Source: an uncultured Gemmatimonadota bacterium
GTDB taxonomy: Bacteria > Gemmatimonadota > Gemmatimonadetes > Gemmatimonadales > Gemmatimonadaceae
Length of the DNA: 17,751 nucleotides
Assembly: GCA_946479015.1 (NCBI GenBank)
Contig: CAMLEQ010000024.1
Span: 1-17,751 of the forward strand
Direction: 5' to 3'
Shown here: piece after piece, positions 3,899 to 16,591 of the stretch
How positions within the stretch are numbered: position 1 is the stretch's first letter
Layout: each line of letters starts with the position of its first letter
Made by a program: the position numbers and the translations under genes
The notes under the pieces: model-generated
Seen by the model: the letters and a program-made list of their open reading frames with translations, nothing else
Told to the model about the DNA's origin: nothing
Database searches by the model: none

Positions 3899-4723
3899 AT
3901 GACCACCACGCACATCGCGACTTCGCGCGACACCGCGACGCTCACCTACGTGGGCGGGCCCACCGCCCTCATCGAGCTGCGCGGACTTCGCTTCCTGACC
4001 GATCCCACCTTCGACTCGGCAGGGGCGCGGCACCCTGGCGCGACGGGGACCTACGTGCTCGAGAAGACGATGGGCCCCGCACTCGACGGCCGCGAGCTCG
4101 GACACGTCGATGCCGTACTCCTCTCGCACGACCATCACGCGGACAACCTGGACGGTGCGGGGCGTGCCATGCTCCGGCGCGCCGACCGCGTGCTCACGAC
4201 CGCGGCCGGTGCCGAGCGACTGGGCGGGCACAGCATCGGGATGCGGCCCTGGGACACCGTGGTCTTGCCCACGCCCGACGGACGGGAGATCCGCGTGACC
4301 GCCACTCCCGCGCGCCACGGCCCGGAAGGAGGAGACCGTGGTCCCGTCGTCGGGTTCGTGCTGCAGCCGGTCCACGCTCCTGATGAGGGGATCTACGTCA
4401 CGGGCGACACAGTGTGGTACGAGGGAGTCGCGGAGGTCGCGCGGCGGTTCGCGGTGCGTGCGATCGTCGCTTTTCTCGGCGCCGCGCGGGTCGCCGCCGT
4501 TGGACCTTCGCACATCACGCTGACCGCCGAGGAGGGCGTGGAGCTCGCCCGCGCGTTCCCGACGGCCACCGTCGTCCCCCTGCACTTCGAGGGATGGGCC
4601 CACTTCACGGAGGGGCGCTCGGAGATCGCGGCTGCCTTCGCGTCGGCAGGGCTCGAGCACCGGCTGCGCTGGCCCGAGCCCGGCCGACCCGTGGGGCTGA
4701 TCACGGAGTTGTACGGCGAGTAG
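3899..4723 (+). CDS. MBL-fold metallo-hydrolase (UlaG-like)
   Basis: Protein of 274 residues with a complete metallo-beta-lactamase fold. It shows an opening strand with VGGPTALIEL (18-27), FLTDPTF (32-38), metal-site motif LLSHDHHADNLD (74-85), second-site His140 in TPARHGPEGG, Asp170 in YVTGDTVWYEG and a final His229 in VVPLHFEGWAHF. The HxHxDH box has the variant HDHHADN, where the usual D-H pair reads A-D, so the metal ligands are slightly rearranged. The family hydrolyses esters, lactones or phosphodiesters; no substrate is predicted. There is no signal peptide, so it is probably cytoplasmic. The ATG at 3899 is chosen because homology begins shortly after it, although the frame is open further upstream. 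Its last 23 bp overlap the end of the convergent lipoprotein gene. Confidence 0.87.
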   Translation: MTTTHIATSRDTATLTYVGGPTALIELRGLRFLTDPTFDSAGARHPGATGTYVLEKTMGPALDGRELGHVDAVLLSHDHHADNLDGAGRAMLRRADRVLTTAAGAERLGGHSIGMRPWDTVVLPTPDGREIRVTATPARHGPEGGDRGPVVGFVLQPVHAPDEGIYVTGDTVWYEGVAEVARRFAVRAIVAFLGAARVAAVGPSHITLTAEEGVELARAFPTATVVPLHFEGWAHFTEGRSEIAAAFASAGLEHRLRWPEPGRPVGLITELYGE

Positions 4724-5534
4724 CGGTCCCCACTCCGGTCAGCGCGACACGGTATTCCCCGCGCTCCGCATCCCAGCGCACGCTGTACCCCTCCGGGTAG
4801 AAGCCGTCGACGCGACCGCGCGGCGGGGCGGGGAGGGTCGCGCTGAACTGCGGCTTCGTCTCCAGGTACGCCTTCGTGATCATCGGCTCGGCGAAGATCA
4901 CCTTCCCGTCCCACGAGCCGTAGATCATGGTGCGCGTGAACGGCTGGCCAGTCAGCTCGGCGGAGGTCGTGTCCACCCAGTGCACGCCCATCCTGGCGAA
5001 CGCGAGCGGCGCGGGCATCACGTAGCGGGCCGGGATCCATCGCGCGTCGGGCTTCCGCTCCGCCTTGCGCTGGAACTCGGGATCGGCGGGGTCGATCGCC
5101 AGGCGCTCCGCGTTCTCGATCACGTAGAAGTGGAAGTCGAAGTGCGGGGTGTCGTAGATGCGCGGCGGCTCGTGCCCGCGCGGGTTCCAGTTCATGAGCA
5201 CGTGCCGGAAGGGGGTCGGGTTCCCGGCAGGAAGCTCGAGCACGCTCTCGAACGTGGTGTGCCCGTGCGCGTGCACGCCGCCCCGCGCGTGCTCGTCGGG
5301 AAGACCGGCGAGGGCGCCTTCGCTCAGGGCGACTCCGACCTCGGACTTCCCCTTCGCGATGGTGACGTACGTGCGCGCCGTGCCGTTGCCCACCCGCACG
5401 GCGCGGCCGTACGTGGTGTGGCTCGCGGACGGCGCATCGCCCGATGCCCCCCGGCACGCGGCGAGCGCCGACGAGGCGAGCAGCGCGAGCGTGAGGGCGC
5501 GCGCGCGACCATGGGTTCCGGTGATCCGTCGCAT
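4701..5534 (-). CDS. Lipoprotein resembling the DUF5602/TTHB210 family
   Basis: Protein of 277 residues with a lipoprotein signal peptide: Arg-rich start, hydrophobic ALTLALLASSALAAC, and lipid-attachment Cys27. The mature part carries histidine-rich motifs, HARGGVHAHGHTTFE (82-96) and TPHFDFHFYVIE (129-140), then a beta-rich domain with GVHWVD and YGSWDGKVIFAEPMIT. These patterns resemble DUF5602, the family of Thermus TTHB210, whose expression is under a sigma-E/anti-sigma-E pair as I recall it; the assignment is by motif memory and is moderately secure. The clustered His and Asp residues suggest metal binding (inference). The start is well supported, with GAGAGG six bases before the ATG. 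It is divergent from an ECF sigma factor across 179 bp and overlaps the MBL gene tail-to-tail. Confidence 0.75.
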   Translation of the reverse strand: MRRITGTHGRARALTLALLASSALAACRGASGDAPSASHTTYGRAVRVGNGTARTYVTIAKGKSEVGVALSEGALAGLPDEHARGGVHAHGHTTFESVLELPAGNPTPFRHVLMNWNPRGHEPPRIYDTPHFDFHFYVIENAERLAIDPADPEFQRKAERKPDARWIPARYVMPAPLAFARMGVHWVDTTSAELTGQPFTRTMIYGSWDGKVIFAEPMITKAYLETKPQFSATLPAPPRGRVDGFYPEGYSVRWDAERGEYRVALTGVGTATRRTTP

Positions 5535-5640
5535 GTGATCCTCTCGAGTCGTGGGTCCGAGATCCCATGCGGAAAATCCGGCCGACGGTGCTCACTCCGG
5601 CCGAGCCCGGCGCGCGCGCCGTTCCGATGGCGACGTGGGC

Positions 5641-5668
5641 TTGCGCCCGGTGCACGGCCCTCTATCGT
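5641..5668 (+). promoter_or_regulatory. Possible promoter of the sigma/kinase operon
   Basis: TTGCGC (5641-5646), 16 nt spacer, TATCGT (5663-5668): three and four matches to the housekeeping -35 and -10 hexamers. Transcription from here would give a leader of about 40 nt before the ATG at 5714. The match is modest in a GC-rich background. Confidence 0.3.
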
Positions 5669-5713
5669 TGGCGAGCCGCCGACGCCGCTCGGCGGCCCTC
5701 TCGGGAGGGAGCC

Positions 5714-6289
5714 ATGACATCGCCCCCATCGCACGAGGTCACGCGACTCCTCGACTCGCTGCGCCGCGGTGACCGGGGCGTGATGGACGTGCTCTTCCCA
5801 CTCGTGTACGGCGAGCTGCGCGGCCTGGCGAGGCGGCAGCTCTCGCGCGAGCGCCCCGGTCACACGCTCGACTCTGTGGCGCTCGTGAACGAGGCGTACC
5901 TCAAGCTCGTGGACCAGGGAGATGTGCACCCGCGGAACCGCGCGCACTTCTTCGCCGTGTCCGCGCGCGCCATGCGCGCCATCCTCGTGGATCATGCGCG
6001 CGCCCGGAACGCGGCCAAGCGCGGCGGCGGAGGCGTCCCCGTTTCCCTGGACGACGTGGCCGAGCTGCTCTCCGACGAGCAGGCGGAGCACGTGGAGCAG
6101 CTCGACGAGGCGCTGGCGCGGCTCGCGGTGGTGAACGAGGAAGCGAGCCGCGTGGTCGAGTGCCTGTACTTCGGCGGCCTCGGGCTCGAGGAAACGGCCG
6201 AGGCGCTCGCGCTCTCGGTGGCCACGGTGCGCCGGCGCTGGAGCTTCGCCAAGGCGTGGCTCGCCCGCGATCTGCGGAACGACGGCTGA
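5714..6289 (+). CDS. ECF RNA polymerase sigma factor, TIGR02999 type, kinase-linked
   Basis: Protein of 191 residues. Region 2 spans about residues 8-98 (LFPLVYGELRGLARRQL, then TLDSVALVNEAYLKLV at 51-66 and FFAVSARAMRAILVDHARARNAAKRGG). Region 4 spans about 125-188 and ends in the family hallmark TVRRRWSFAKAWLARDL (171-187). Directing polymerase to a specific promoter set is the family role. Region 2.2, usually acidic (D-A-E-D), reads D-S-V-A (53-56), so two acidic contacts to the polymerase beta-prime coiled coil are missing. This is the situation in ECF groups controlled by Ser/Thr kinases. There is no anti-sigma gene; a kinase follows 3 nt after the stop. The start at 5714 is set by GGGAGGGAG just before the ATG; the frame is open upstream, but the extra residues do not resemble the family. 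Confidence 0.93.
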   Translation: MTSPPSHEVTRLLDSLRRGDRGVMDVLFPLVYGELRGLARRQLSRERPGHTLDSVALVNEAYLKLVDQGDVHPRNRAHFFAVSARAMRAILVDHARARNAAKRGGGGVPVSLDDVAELLSDEQAEHVEQLDEALARLAVVNEEASRVVECLYFGGLGLEETAEALALSVATVRRRWSFAKAWLARDLRNDG

Positions 6290-6292
6290 CCG

Positions 6293-8836
6293 ATGAGCGG
6301 GCCCGACCTGTACCGCCGCGTGTGCGAGCTCTTCGACGCGGCGCTGGAGCTCGACGCGGGCGCGCGCTCCGCCTTCCTGGACGACGTGTGCCGGGGCGAT
6401 GCCGTGGTGCGGCGCGAGGTGGCGTCGCTGCTCGAGTCGTTCGACGGCACGCGCACGGCGGCGCTCTTCCCGCCGCTCTTCCGGGCCGAGGAGGCCGGGA
6501 CGCTCGCCATCGGCCAGCGCATCGGGCCGTACACGCTCCGCCGGGCGATCGGGGAGGGGGGGATGGGCATCGTGTACCAGGCGACGCGCGAGGACGTGGG
6601 GAAGACGGTCGCGCTCAAGCTGGTGCGCCACGGCCGGCTCGCGTCGCCGGAGCACCTGCGGCGCTTCCTGCTCGAGCGGCGCGTGCTGGCCCGCCTGGAG
6701 CACGCGAACATCGCGCGGCTGCTCGACGCCGGCGTCACCGACTCCGGGCTCCCGTACCTCGTGATGGACTACGTGGACGGCGATCCGATCGACCGGTACT
6801 GCCATGCGCGCCGCCTCCCGGTGGAGGAGCGCCTCGCGCTCTTCTGTCGGGTGTGCGATGCGGTGCACTACGCGCACCGGCATCTGGTGGTGCATCGCGA
6901 CCTGAAGCCGTCGAACATCGCGGTCGCCGACGACGGCGTGCCGAAGCTCCTGGACTTCGGCATCGCCACGCTGATGGAGGAGGGCGGAGGCGTGGAGGGG
7001 AGGCTCACGCGCACGGGGCTCGTCATGCTGACGCCGGAGTACGCCGCGCCCGAGCAGGTGCGAGGGGAGCCGGTGACGACGGCCAGCGACGTCTACGCGC
7101 TGGGGCTCCTGCTGTTCGAGCTGCTGACCGGCGAGCGGCCGTACCGTCGGGAGTCGCGCACGACGCCGGAGCTGCTGCGGGCCATCTGCGAGGAGGAGCC
7201 GGAGCCGCCATCGGTGGTGGCGCGTCGTAGTCAGGCATCGCCGCGGCTCGCGCGCCGGCTGCGGGGGGACCTGGACACCATCGTGCTGAAGGCGCTCCGG
7301 AAGGAACCGGAGCGCCGGTATCATTCCGCGCAGGAGCTGCGGGAGGACATCGACCGCCACCTCGCCGGGCGGCCGGTGCGGGCGCGCGGCGACTCGATCC
7401 GGTACCGATCGCGGAAGTTCGTGCGACGGCACCGGGCGGCCGTCGCCGCCTCCGCGCTCCTCGTGCTCACGCTCGCCGGGGGGGTGGTCGCCACGGCGTT
7501 CCAGGCACGGCGCGCGGAAGCGGAGCGGGCCATCGCCGAGCAGCGGTTCCGGGACGTGCGCTCGCTCGCCGGCGAGCTCCTGTCCGACGTGCACGACGCG
7601 ATCAGCGACCTCCCCGGCTCGCTCCCGGTGCGCGCCACGCTCGTGACCGGAGCGCTCGAGCATCTGGACCGGCTGTATCGCCAGGCCGGCGACGACCCGG
7701 CGTTGATGCGGGAGATCGCCGCGGCGTACGTGAAGCTCGGGCTGGTGCAGGGGGATCCGACGGTCGCGAATCTTGGAGATCTCGCCGCCGCGCGCCGGAG
7801 CTTCGAGCGGGCGCTGTCGATCGCGGAGCGGTTGGTGGCGGCGGATCCGGGCGATCACGTGGCGCGGCGCACGCTCGCGCTCGCGCACGAGAAGATGAGC
7901 GATGCGGATGCGTGGGGGGGACGGCTGCCGGAGGGGGTCGCGCACGCGCGCAGCGCCCTCGAGCAGTGGCAGTCGCTCGCCACCGCCAATCCGGCGAGCA
8001 CGAGCGCCCTCCGCGCGGTGGTGACGAGCCACATCAAGCTCGGGGATCTCCTCGGCAACCCGAACCTCCCGAGCCTCTCCGAGCGCGCGGGCGCCACGCG
8101 CGAGTACCGGCACGCGCTCGCGCTGCTCGGCACCGTGCCGCGCGACAGCCTGAACGACTGGGCGACGCGGCGGCTGCTCGCGCTCGTGCACGAGCGGCTC
8201 GGGGCGATGCTGACCCTGGAGGGCCGGCACGCCGACGGGATCGCGGCGCTGGAGCGCACGCTGGTCATCCGCGAGGGGCTCGTGCGCGAGCGCGGCGCGA
8301 GCACCAACGCGCTGCGCGATCTGGCGGTGACGCACCAGGTCCTGTGCGAGGCGCGGCTCGCGGGCGGAGACCGCGGCGGGGCGCTGGCGCACTGCCGGCG
8401 GGGGGTGGCGCTGTACGAGTCGCTCCGCTCCGCCGATGCGCGGAACGCGCAGAGTCTCCACGATCTGGCGCTCGGCAGGCTGTCGATGCACAAGGTGCTC
8501 GCGGCCCGCGGCGAGCTGCACGCCTCGCTGGCGCAGCTCGACCTGAGCACCGAGCTGCTGCGCCGGCTCCTCGCGTCGCACGCCGACAACGTGCCCGCCC
8601 GGCGCGACCTCGCGCGCGGTCTCCTGTACGCCAGCACGGTGCACTCGCGGCTCGCCGCGCGCGGGAGTGGCGCCCCGGAGCAGCGCCACACGCACCGGCG
8701 GCACGCGATCGCGTCCTACGAGGAGGGGGAGCGGCTGCTGCTCGAGCTGCGCGCGACGGGGCGGATGGCGACCGAGGATTCGGTGCTGCTCGGGCGGGCG
8801 CGGGGGGCGCTCGGCGCCGGGCGCCGGGATCGCTGA
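6293..8836 (+). CDS. Transmembrane Ser/Thr protein kinase with TPR-like C-terminal domain
   Basis: Protein of 847 residues. The N-terminal segment (1-72), with LYRRVCELFDAALEL and FLDDVCRGD, is typical of bacterial kinases of this class. The kinase domain (about 78-360) is complete: glycine loop IGEGGMGIVY (86-95), Lys109 in VALKL, Glu128, catalytic HRDLKPSN (201-208), DFG 221-223 and APE 252-254. All key residues are intact, so it should be active. One membrane helix (about 382-402, AAVAASALLVLTLAGGVVATA) separates it from an alpha-helical 440-residue C-terminus with loosely repeating TPR-like units (for example AAARRSFERALSIAERLVAADP), probably extracytoplasmic and sensory. It starts 3 nt after the sigma stop, so the two genes are co-transcribed and probably translationally coupled. 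The most likely substrate is the adjacent sigma factor (inference). Confidence 0.95.
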   Translation: MSGPDLYRRVCELFDAALELDAGARSAFLDDVCRGDAVVRREVASLLESFDGTRTAALFPPLFRAEEAGTLAIGQRIGPYTLRRAIGEGGMGIVYQATREDVGKTVALKLVRHGRLASPEHLRRFLLERRVLARLEHANIARLLDAGVTDSGLPYLVMDYVDGDPIDRYCHARRLPVEERLALFCRVCDAVHYAHRHLVVHRDLKPSNIAVADDGVPKLLDFGIATLMEEGGGVEGRLTRTGLVMLTPEYAAPEQVRGEPVTTASDVYALGLLLFELLTGERPYRRESRTTPELLRAICEEEPEPPSVVARRSQASPRLARRLRGDLDTIVLKALRKEPERRYHSAQELREDIDRHLAGRPVRARGDSIRYRSRKFVRRHRAAVAASALLVLTLAGGVVATAFQARRAEAERAIAEQRFRDVRSLAGELLSDVHDAISDLPGSLPVRATLVTGALEHLDRLYRQAGDDPALMREIAAAYVKLGLVQGDPTVANLGDLAAARRSFERALSIAERLVAADPGDHVARRTLALAHEKMSDADAWGGRLPEGVAHARSALEQWQSLATANPASTSALRAVVTSHIKLGDLLGNPNLPSLSERAGATREYRHALALLGTVPRDSLNDWATRRLLALVHERLGAMLTLEGRHADGIAALERTLVIREGLVRERGASTNALRDLAVTHQVLCEARLAGGDRGGALAHCRRGVALYESLRSADARNAQSLHDLALGRLSMHKVLAARGELHASLAQLDLSTELLRRLLASHADNVPARRDLARGLLYASTVHSRLAARGSGAPEQRHTHRRHAIASYEEGERLLLELRATGRMATEDSVLLGRARGALGAGRRDR

Positions 8837-13404: not shown

Positions 13405-13968
13405 TCACGTGGTCCGCGTCTGCTCGCGCGTCCCCCCGTCGTCGCGCGGGGCGTCGACGGCGATGTACGTCACCGTGTCCCATGCGTTGTGGATCCCGAT
13501 GAGCAGCAAGCCGAGCGCCGTGCCGGCGATGGCGAACAGCGCGCCCCGGGTGCTCGGGCGGAGGAGCACCGCGGAGAGCAGGAGCGCGGCGTAGACGCTG
13601 CACGGCAGGATCGCGTGCCAGAGCCAGTCCTCGAACACCGGCTTGTAGGTCGTCTGGCGACGGGCACGGTAGACCACGGTCGCGGCGTAGCCGACGCCGA
13701 TGATACCGCAGGCGGCGAGCACGATCGCCAGGGAGAGGAGGGTGGGCCACGGAGCGCTCATGATGGCCGAGATGAGCAGCGCGCCGCCCAGGTGCACGAC
13801 GGTCGGCGTTCCGAAGGCGCTGATCGATCCGGCGGTGCCAGGCGTGCGCGTGTCGGCGATGAGGGTGATCACCACGAACTGCAGGCCGATGAGCGCGGCG
13901 CCCGATGAGCCGACGATGACGTAGAAGCTTTCCCAGCCGGAGAGGGCTGGATGCGCGAGCTCGGTCAT
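13405..13968 (-). CDS. Five-helix integral membrane protein of unknown function
   Basis: I do not recognise the family. The protein has 187 residues and about five hydrophobic helices (approximately 14-37, 56-72, 75-100, 118-136 and 142-162), with a positively charged loop after helix 3 ([12 protein letters not shown]) and a polar, charged tail rich in Asp, Arg and Thr. [11 protein letters not shown] follows the last helix and contains the only concentration of potentially functional polar residues in or near the membrane. The start is good, with GGAGG seven bases before the ATG at 13968. It is the first gene of the leftward run and is divergent from the LuxR-type regulator, so the two probably share control. 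Confidence 0.75.
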
Positions 13969-14004
13969 GAGTGTGCCTCCGGTAATGTCTCCGATGGGAA
14001 GGAG

Positions 14005-14032
14005 AGCTTACCGGCGCGTGAACATCGGTCAA
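14005..14032 (-). promoter_or_regulatory. Possible promoter of the leftward four-gene run
   Basis: Minus strand TTGACC (14032-14027), 16-nt spacer, TAAGCT (14010-14005). The -35 is good, the -10 poor. It lies in the 184-bp gap between the divergent membrane-protein and LuxR-type genes. The same gap holds a small CGGTC/GACCG dyad (14026-14030 and 14036-14040) overlapping the -35, and a palindromic CACCGGTG nearby. Confidence 0.25.
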
Positions 14033-14152
14033 GTGGACCGTCGGCACCGAGGATGCGGCCCCTCGCGGCCGACACCGGTGCGCGTTGATGGCCGGCGTGG
14101 CGCAGCGCATCTTTCCGGCAGGTGCTCCCCCACCCTCCGCCAGGCCATACTC

Positions 14153-16591
14153 ATGTCCGGACCACCACTGGCACCGCTTCCGGCACCAGCGACGAGTCTC
14201 GTCGGGCGCGATCGCGACCTCGCGGAGATCCAGGAGCGGCTGGTCCGGCCCGACGTCCGCCTGCTGACGCTCACGGGCGCCCCCGGCGTCGGCAAGACGC
14301 GCCTCGCCATCGAGGCGGCGCGCCGGCACGCGCCGCACTTCCGCGACGGCAGCGTCTTCGTTCCACTCGCGCCCGTCGAGTCGGCGGCGCACGCGCCGGC
14401 CGCGCTCCTCGACGCGCTGGGGCTGCGCGCCGAAGACGGCGTCCCGGCGCTGCGCGAGCACTTCCGCGCACGCCGGTGTCTGCTCGTGCTCGACAACCTG
14501 GAGCACCTGCCGGACGTGTCGCTGCTCGTGGCCGAGCTGCTGGCGTGGGCGCCGGACCTCGTGGTGCTCGCGACCAGCCGCGTGCCGCTGCACCTCTCCA
14601 GCGAGCACGAGCTCGAGGTCGCACCCCTTCCGATCCCGGGTACCGGGCTCGAGGCGCGCGCGACGGAGCTCGCCGAGAACTCCTCCGTGGCGCTGTTCCT
14701 CGCGCGCGCCCGAGCGGTGTCGCCGGGATTCGACCTGACCGCGGCGAATGCCGCGGTCGTTGCGGAGCTGTGCCGCCGCCTCGAGGGGATCCCGCTCGCG
14801 ATCGAGCTGGCCGCCGCCCGCATCAAGTTCTTCGACCCGACCGCTCTCCTCGAGCGACTGGCGAGCCGGCTGGGGACGCTTCGCGGCGGCGCGCGCGACC
14901 TGCCGGCGCGCCAGCGCACGCTGGAGGCGGCGATCGCGTGGAGTCACGACCTGCTCCCGCCGCCGGAGCGACGCGTGTTCGCGACGCTCTCGATCTTCGC
15001 GGGCGGATGGGACATGGATGCCGCCGTGGACGTGTGCGGCGCCGATGCGGACGGGGAGCCGCTCGCGGCGCTGGAGTCGCTCGTCGATCACAGCCTCGTG
15101 CAGCGATCCACCGGCTCGGGCGCATCCCGGTTCGTGATGCTGGAGACGCTGCGCGAGTACGCGCGCGCCCGGCTGGACGACGAGGGGCCGTGCCGACGGG
15201 AGGCGGCCTCGCGGCGCCACGCGCGCCACTTCCTGGACCTCGCGCGACGGACGGCGCCGGCGTTGCGCGGCGCGCGCGCCGGAGCGGCGCTCGGCCGGCT
15301 CGACCCCGACCGCGACAACCTGCGCGCGGCGATCGCGTGGAGCCTCGAGGCCGGCGACGCGGGCCTCGCGCTCGGTCTCTGCACATCGCTCGGCGAGTAC
15401 TGGCGCATGCGCGGGCTCCTCACCGAGGGGCGCGCCGCGATCGATCGCGCGCTTCGTCTGGCCGGCGGCTCCCACGCGGACCGCGCCGGCACGCTCTGCG
15501 CCGCCGGGAGGCTCGCCCGGCTACAGGGCGATCTACCGGCCGCACGGGATCGGCTCGACGAGACCGTCCGGCTGGCCGCCGACCCGAGCCTTCGCGCGAC
15601 ACGCGCCGAGGCGCTGACGGAGCTGGGACTCGTGTCGGTGGCGCTCGGTGATCTCGACGCGGCGGAGATGCGGCTCGCGGAGGCGTGGCGCCTCTGGGAT
15701 GCGGATGGCGATGCGTGGGGGCGCCTGCTCGCGCTGCATGCGCGCGCGCGGCTGGCGATCGCCCGGTCCGACCTGAAGTGCGCGCAGCGCCTGCGGGCCG
15801 AAGCGGTGGCGCTCGCTCGCGAAATGGGGGATGCCGAGTGGGAAGCGCGCGCGCTCGTCGGGCTCGGCGACATCGCGCGGCACCGGAGCGACTACCGCGG
15901 CGCGCGCCCGCGGTACGAGCGGGCGATGGCGCTGTACCGGGAGATCCAGAATCCCGTCCATCTCGCGCTCGGGCTGCGAAAGCTCGCGCACGTCGCGCTG
16001 CACCTCGGTGACCTGTCCGGCGCTCGTGAGGCGCTGCTGGAGAGCCTCGCGGTCTTCCAGCGCATCGAGCAGCGCGGCGGCGTCGCCGCCTGCGTAATGG
16101 GGCTGGGCTGCGTCCTCAGCGCAGAGGAGGACGACGTCGCCGCGGCTCGTCTTCTCGCCGCATCGGGGCTCCTGCTCGGCGATGACACGGGCGTCCTCCA
16201 GGATGCGGACGCGCGCGACCGCGACGCCGCGCTCGCGCGGAGCCGCGCGCGACTCGGCGACACCCGGTTCGAGGAGGCGCTGGGGCAGGGGCGCATCACT
16301 CCCCTGGAGCAACTGCTCGCCGCATCGGCGGCGAGCCGCGCATCCGCGGATGCGCGGCCCGCCGCGACGGCCAAGGCGGCGTCGGAGGCGGCGCCGCGCG
16401 AGCTCCTCACCGCGCGAGAGCTGGATGTGCTCCGCCTGCTGCCGGAGGGGCTCAGCTACGCCGAGATCGGGGACCGGCTCGGGATCACCGCTCGCACCGT
16501 CGACGCGCACCTGCGTGCCGTCTACGCCAAGTTGCACGTCCGCTCGCGTCACCAGGCGTCCGCGTACGCGCGGCGACACGGGCTCGCGTGA
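14153..16591 (+). CDS. ATPase/TPR/LuxR-type transcriptional regulator
   Basis: Protein of 812 residues. The N-terminal STAND-type ATPase has [12 protein letters not shown] (15-26), Walker [11 protein letters not shown] (41-50), Walker [12 protein letters not shown] (109-119), sensor VLATSR (138-143) and [13 protein letters not shown] (211-223). A helical TPR-like region runs through the middle (about 400-700), with [17 protein letters not shown] and similar repeats. An Ala-rich linker leads to a C-terminal LuxR helix-turn-helix (750-812: [31 protein letters not shown]). Such proteins bind ATP and an unknown ligand and then activate transcription. It is divergent from the membrane-protein run and upstream of a cupin gene; both are candidate targets. 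ATG 14153 is chosen because the upstream open frame is not family-like; the Shine-Dalgarno is weak. Confidence 0.92.

What the first reader, a model, noticed from the sequence alone, without database searches (positions are those of the whole stretch)
5714..8836. Kinase-coupled ECF sigma factor lacking region 2.2 acidic residues and the usual phospho-acceptor
The sigma factor has D-S-V-A (53-56) where ordinary ECF factors have D-A-E-D, and an intact Ser/Thr kinase begins 3 nt downstream with no anti-sigma gene. In the EcfP/PknT pair of Vibrio parahaemolyticus, as I recall it, loss of these acids makes the sigma factor inactive until a threonine there is phosphorylated. In the related family sequence I remember (TALVHEAYL), that threonine aligns with Val55 here. 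Ser54 and Thr51 remain as candidate acceptors. Either the acceptor has shifted or the control differs from the known model.
Basis: partly seen in the sequence, partly recalled or inferred. Interest (0 to 1): 0.7.

Follow-up and report, generated by a model that had tools for sequence, protein, structure and literature searches.

The report
Kinase-paired sigma factor missing phosphorylation site
A bacterium carries a gene switch (a sigma factor) paired with a protein kinase, but the amino acid that such kinases are known to phosphorylate has been replaced in it and in nearly all of its close relatives, so the pair probably works by a modified version of a known switch.

Summary
Window 5714-6289 encodes a TIGR02999/PF07638 ECF sigma factor (191 aa); a PknS-like Hanks kinase with intact motifs starts 3 nt later; no anti-sigma gene adjoins. 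Region 2.2 reads TL-D53-S54-V55-A56-LVNE. V55 holds the site phosphorylated in EcfP and EcfK, but D53, first acid of the canonical DxxD, is present, so "lacking acidic residues" is only partly right.

It is no quirk of one gene: 117 of 120 sigma rows (window included) read D-S/T-V/I-A. Of 300 wider family members read, 284 have Thr/Ser at the acceptor position and 16 do not. The linker position I align with EcfK T106 is Pro in 103 of those 117. Sixteen contig lengths occur in both the sigma and the kinase homologue lists, so the pair appears to travel together.

Best reading: a new variant of the kinase-coupled sigma type, with one core-binding acid restored (D53) and a displaced acceptor, Ser54 the first candidate. 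The Ser54 case is only suggestive: the phylogenetically controlled test did not support it, and had too few informative pairs. A D53-based bypass is nearly as likely.

The parts
5714..6289 (+). ECF sigma factor, 191 aa, TIGR02999 / PF07638
5870..5881 (+). codons for D53-S54-V55-A56 of region 2.2 (V55 stands where the family has its phospho-Thr; D53 = first acid of DxxD)
   Evidence: alignments
6044..6046 (+). codon for linker residue S111, aligned by me with EcfK T106 (uncertain by about one residue); Pro in 103 of 117 clade rows
6293..8836 (+). Hanks-type Ser/Thr kinase, 847 aa: N-terminal extension 1-79, kinase domain 80-347, one strongly hydrophobic stretch about 382-405 (likely membrane span), C-terminal region with weak TPR signal
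4701..5534 (-). divergent TTHB210-like (PF18197) gene; a gene of like translation is divergent from the sigma gene in L111 too; candidate target gene (inference)

Best explanation
The pair is a kinase-controlled ECF sigma factor of the TIGR02999 / ECF43-like kind whose switch has been rebuilt. Shown: in the clade the known region 2.2 phospho-Thr is Val or Ile, the linker position that I align with EcfK T106 is mostly Pro, D53 is fixed, a hydroxyl residue is fixed at 54, and close kinase homologues keep their catalytic motifs and, in sixteen cases, a contig length shared with a sigma row. Inferred: D53 gives the sigma factor a basal contact with the beta-prime subunit, and the membrane kinase, on sensing a signal through its outer C-terminal region, phosphorylates Ser54 at the start of the region 2.2 helix, adding the charge that pThr gives in EcfP and so promoting core binding. 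Likely targets include its own operon and the divergent TTHB210-like gene (inference).
For: Position 54 is Ser or Thr in 118 of 118 tips with D53 and Val/Ile55 (Ser 117, Thr 1; L082 and P0013 among them are identical in the kept columns) against 138 of 284 acceptor-bearing relatives. Of 16 family members without Thr/Ser at 55, 15 have Ser/Thr at 54 (Fisher p = 3.9e-4). HRDLKPxN and DFG are present in 46 of 46 kinase rows checked: the window's and P0122-P0166, of 120 listed. Sixteen longest-contig lengths occur in both the sigma list and the kinase list: 18650 (the window's own), 9331 (read as L111), 47543, 13820, 14560, 7211, 44510, 89277, 31807, 372480, 6097, 11432, 4854, 9574, 17292, 4322; the gene order itself was seen only in the window and L111. 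The kinase's best solved relative by sequence is 9EED = PknS, aligned over 7-357, N-terminal extension included. The predicted helix starts at residue 54 (mean pLDDT of residues 51-60 is 70). EcfK Gln49, by numbering the equivalent of D53, lies in the predicted RpoC contact network (PMC13147305).
Against: With phylogenetic control the link of acceptor loss with Ser/Thr54 is not significant: 11 independent pairs, same way 1.9, opposite 0.0, no difference 9.1, median p 0.5; with so few differing pairs the test could not have reached 0.05. Hydroxyl at 54 also goes with an acid at 53 where Thr/Ser55 is present (24 of 31 against 114 of 253, p = 9e-4), so it need not be a substitute acceptor. Conservation of column 54 in the clade is not exceptional: 13 of 44 columns of similar outside variability change as little. 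DFG+1 is Ile in 46 of 46 kinase rows checked, which by a rule recalled from eukaryotic kinases predicts Thr preference. Ser83, Ser120, Ser145 and Ser177 are clade-enriched too. Two rows that nest in the clade have Thr55 (DTTA: P0114, P0121) and a third, a fragment, is QATA (P0116). In one genome an orthologous kinase stands without such a sigma gene beside it.
Confidence: 0.42

Rival explanations
1. D53 alone restores enough core contact: the sigma factor no longer needs a phosphate in region 2.2. The kinase acts at another site (S111 in this protein, S83 or S120 in the clade), tunes activity up or down, or has other substrates.
For: D53 is in 118 of 118 clade tips against an acid in 31 of 284 relatives with Thr/Ser at 55; Ser/Thr at 83 is 0.87 vs 0.08 and at 120 0.96 vs 0.42. 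Loss of the acceptor is associated in the raw counts with an acid at 53 (7 of 16 vs 31 of 284, p = 1.5e-3). Three sigma factors with E-T-D-G, natural acid mimics, still have a kinase downstream (3 of 3). EcfK T51A is functional in vivo; its motif QATE keeps one acid (PMC13147305).
Against: An acid at 53 also occurs with Thr/Ser55 present and a kinase next door (20 of 29 with room), so acid 53 does not by itself make phosphorylation dispensable. With phylogenetic control the acid-53 link is not significant either (11 pairs: same way 3.0, opposite 0.5, median p 0.375).
Confidence: 0.38
2. The linker site, as in EcfK T106, is the working switch in this one protein (S111).
For: Window S111 aligns with a linker position that is Ser/Thr in 169 of 284 acceptor-bearing relatives. 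In EcfK, phosphorylation of either T51 or T106 is reported to suffice (PMC13147305).
Against: Pro in 103 of 117 clade rows, Ser in 7, so it cannot be the clade's common mechanism. The match with T106 is inferred without the EcfK sequence in hand.
Confidence: 0.1
3. The pairing is a relic: kinase and sigma are functionally uncoupled and the motif is neutral drift.
For: A 68% identical kinase on a contig of 5311527 bases (the length listed for the Gemmatirosa kalamazoonensis kinase P0148) has no sigma gene of this family in the 9.5 kb read around it.
Against: Column 53 has no change and column 54 one change inside the clade, kinase motifs are kept in 46 of 46 rows checked, and sixteen shared contig lengths argue for retained linkage.
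Confidence: 0.1

Closest known systems
EcfP / PknT, Vibrio parahaemolyticus (ECF43)
   Same: ECF sigma with a partner Hanks kinase and no anti-sigma in the described model; region 2.2 departs from DAED
   Different: EcfP has STTA with the second Thr phosphorylated (PMC8999054, passages); here DSVA, with Val at that site and an acid at the first position
EcfK / PknS, Xanthomonas citri (ECF43)
   Same: Kinase of the same layout (about 80-residue N-terminal extension, kinase domain, membrane span); 9EED is the window kinase's best solved relative; sigma keeps one acid in the motif (QATE / DSVA)
   Different: EcfK has acceptors T51 and linker T106; here Val55, and linker Ser111 in the window but Pro in most of the clade; PknS's three TPRs are matched here only by a sub-cut-off TPR hit
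TIGR02999-type sigma factors with other acceptor-less motifs (QTNA, NTNA, QTAA, QSAA, QPAA, DTGA, DTAA, ATGD, ETDG)
   Same: Lack Thr/Ser at position 55; 14 of these 15 rows have Ser/Thr at 54; several lie beside a kinase
   Different: Lie outside the DSVA clade, scattered on the tree

Membership tests
TIGR02999 / PF07638 ECF sigma factors | Profile score above curated cut-off | tested here: met
   208.7 vs 126.15 bits; PF07638 181.3 vs 21.1
ECF43 group | Assignment by the ECF group models | not testable with these tools
   The group models are not among the libraries offered
ECF43 group | Hanks kinase gene beside the sigma gene (called a hallmark in PMC13147305) | tested here: met
   3 nt downstream; also in L111
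ECF43 group | Region 2.2 lacks the DAED motif (PMC8999054) | tested here: inconclusive
   D53 present, no acid at 55 or 56; 31 of 284 relatives with Thr/Ser at 55 also have an acid at 53
EcfP-type phospho-Thr switch | Thr (or Ser) at the third motif position | tested here: not met
   Val55; Val/Ile in 117 of 120 sigma rows, window included
EcfP-type phospho-Thr switch | Phosphorylation by the partner kinase activates the sigma factor | not testable with these tools
   Needs biochemistry
EcfK-type linker switch | Ser/Thr/Asp/Glu at the T106 position | tested here: inconclusive
   Window Ser111; clade Pro 103, Ser 7, Ala 4, Arg 1, Gln 1, Glu 1 of 117; equivalence inferred
PknS-like receptor kinase | N-terminal extension, Hanks domain with catalytic motifs, one membrane span | tested here: met
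   (span by hydrophobicity only)
PknS-like receptor kinase | C-terminal TPR repeats | tested here: inconclusive
   TPR_9 20.3 bits, below the 35 cut-off; several listed homologues carry TPR entries

The most novel reading that the evidence does not exclude
A whole clade of sigma-kinase pairs has moved its phospho-switch by one residue, from position 55 to Ser54, and restored a fixed acid at 53, giving a graded rather than an off/on sigma factor.
Probability: 0.35. Interest if true: 0.62.

Novelty: new variant of a known kind. Interest (0 to 1): 0.46.

Why it matters
I saw two worked examples of ECF43-type activation by phosphorylation described, EcfP and EcfK, and both involve the same region 2.2 Thr. 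A natural clade that lost that Thr, mostly lacks the second linker site too, and yet keeps a kinase with intact motifs is a ready test of which charge in region 2.2 is needed for core binding and of how kinase-sigma pairs re-wire their switch.

Tried and rejected
Thr51 as a new acceptor: rejected as structural, since it is conserved with or without Thr55. A single-gene mutation or misread base: rejected, the motif is shared by the clade. Viral contigs: 7 stretches matched a pattern, none encodes a relative. A sigma-70 promoter and terminator scan of 5500-5760 found nothing. A first motif finder of mine failed to see any sigma gene and was replaced by a profile. The claim that Ser/Thr54 replaces Thr55 across the family was not supported after phylogenetic control. 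The DTTA rows P0114 and P0121 fall inside the DSVA clade (97 and 99 SH-aLRT, quick tree), so either Thr55 was regained or DSVA arose twice; I could not decide. P0116 (QATA, a 149-residue piece on a 723-base contig) also falls in the clade and may be chimeric.

Rows dropped: 329 profile hits became 322 after score and coverage limits and 300 after removal of duplicates; in the tree one gappy row was skipped; the column counts leave out P0114, P0116 and P0121. The 300 are not a random sample: they are the best matches of capped listings and the stretches that I chose to fetch.

Papers: PMC13147305, abstract, outline, section 8 part 1 and passages; PMC8999054, passages only; Iyer et al. 2020 not held, known only through those two. 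The DFG+1 rule and the general region 2.2 background are recalled. Literature listings seen: (no paper); no title or abstract start listed there described this clade, and most subscription journals are not in that library.

Full report
Observation. The sigma ORF runs 5714-6289 and the kinase 6293-8836, 3 nt apart. The sigma factor scores 208.7 bits to TIGR02999 (cut-off 126.15) and matches PF07638. The kinase matches Pkinase, has GEGGMG at 87, HRDLK at 201 and DFG at 221, and one strongly hydrophobic stretch near 382-405. Its best solved relative by sequence is 9EED, aligned over kinase residues 7-357; the paper gives 9EED as PknS. Neighbours are a divergent TTHB210-like gene and an AHSA1-domain gene.

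Region 2.2. The protein reads HTLDSVALVNEAY. Against the canonical DxxD and the family motif xxTALVxEAY, D53 is the first acid, S54 the second position, V55 the position of EcfP's and EcfK's phospho-Thr, and A56 the fourth. EcfP is described as STTA and EcfK as QATE; Thr is reported conserved in 88% of ECF43 members (PMC8999054; PMC13147305). Members without that Thr are therefore already known to exist in number.

The motif belongs to a clade. One search listed the best 120 of 7994 relatives, the window's own protein among them. Of the 120 sigma rows aligned, 114 are DSVA, 2 DSIA, 1 DTVA, 2 DTTA and 1 QATA. In the tree the 118 Val/Ile tips (117 database rows and locus L082) sit in a 121-tip clade with support 0.999; the other three are P0114, P0121 and P0116. 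Several rows bear the source name Gemmatimonadaceae bacterium, and the window's own kinase is listed under that name (P0122). Among genomes searched, only G230 gave a sigma match at the level of the clade's core: in the phylum draw of 298 its 350.5 bits stand against 248.9 for the next; in its family, 1 of 179 genomes at E 1e-70; in the class draw, 9 of 394 genomes at E 1e-69, of which the four not met before read DTTA, GTTA, NATA and SSTA. Weaker matches in those listings were read only in part, so deeper DSVA members may have been missed.

Wider survey. From 335 loci, 300 unique sigma ORFs were kept. Position 55 is Thr/Ser in 284, acidic in 3 and neither in 13 (one of them L082). The acidic three read ETDG. 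A kinase follows on the same strand within 400 nt in 180 of 272 Thr/Ser rows that had 1200 nt of room, in 5 of 9 'neither' rows and in 3 of 3 acidic rows. So losing the acceptor has not, in this sample, meant losing the kinase.

Is Ser54 the new acceptor? For: Ser/Thr at 54 in 118 of 118 clade tips against 138 of 284 relatives; 15 of 16 acceptor-less rows have it (p = 3.9e-4). Against: with independent pairs the link is not significant (median p 0.5), though it never goes the other way and the pairs that differ are too few to reach 0.05; Ser/Thr at 54 also accompanies an acid at 53 when Thr/Ser55 is present, 24 of 31 against 114 of 253; and column 54 is not unusually conserved inside the clade, since 13 of 44 comparable columns change as little. 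DFG+1 is Ile in 46 of 46 kinase rows checked, which a recalled rule links to Thr preference. Other clade-enriched sites are S83, S120, S145 and S177.

D53. It is in 118 of 118 clade tips against an acid in 31 of 284 relatives, and acceptor-less rows have an acid there more often, 7 of 16 (p = 1.5e-3), again not significant with independent pairs. Column 53 does not change inside the clade, as 6 of 46 comparable columns do not.

Linker. The position I align with EcfK T106 is Pro in 103, Ser in 7 and another residue in 7 of 117 clade rows. The window's own S111 is thus a minority state. The equivalence is inferred from numbering and motif; EcfK's sequence was not in hand.

Linkage. Sixteen longest-contig lengths are shared between the 120 sigma rows and the 120 kinase rows, the window's own and L111's among them; I compared the two printed lists by eye. 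In L111 the kinase ORF lies directly after the sigma gene and a gene of like translation to the TTHB210-like one is divergent, as in the window; Pfam was run on the window's copy only. On L124, from a contig of 5311527 bases, the length listed for the Gemmatirosa kalamazoonensis kinase P0148, a 68% identical kinase has no sigma gene of this family in the 9.5 kb read; that genome has at least 11 other family matches.

Structure. The predicted model (mean pLDDT 78.1) starts the region 2.2 helix at residue 54. Fold matches were weak.

Verdict. A kinase-coupled ECF sigma factor of a known kind whose switch is altered across its clade. It is a member of the TIGR02999 sequence family; it is not filed as an EcfP-type phospho-Thr sigma factor, because the defining Thr was tested and is absent. 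The acceptor's move to Ser54 and a D53-based bypass are close rivals that only biochemistry can separate.

Noticed in passing
window 4701-5534 (-), and L111 7255-8265 (+): A TTHB210-like (PF18197) gene in the window, and a gene of like translation in L111, are divergent from the sigma gene; blocks of the DNA between are alike in a two-sequence alignment.
   Followed up: partly
L322, L304, L325: Three sigma factors from the Gemmatimonadota draw carry E-T-D-G in region 2.2, a natural acid at the acceptor position, with a kinase still downstream.
   Followed up: no
L124 4195-6813: A kinase 68% identical to the window's stands without a family sigma gene nearby; the upstream gene on the other strand looks like an ECF41/SigJ-type sigma factor (my reading of the translation).
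   Followed up: partly
P0114, P0121: Two DTTA proteins nest inside the DSVA clade, suggesting regain of the acceptor or two origins of DSVA.
   Followed up: partly
L084, L085, L087, L102, L139, L265: A related group with GATA/GPTA motifs keeps Thr55 but showed no kinase within 400 nt downstream in the stretch read.
   Followed up: no
window 13967-16591 (+): Large regulator with AAA, TPR and LuxR-type HTH matches.
   Followed up: no
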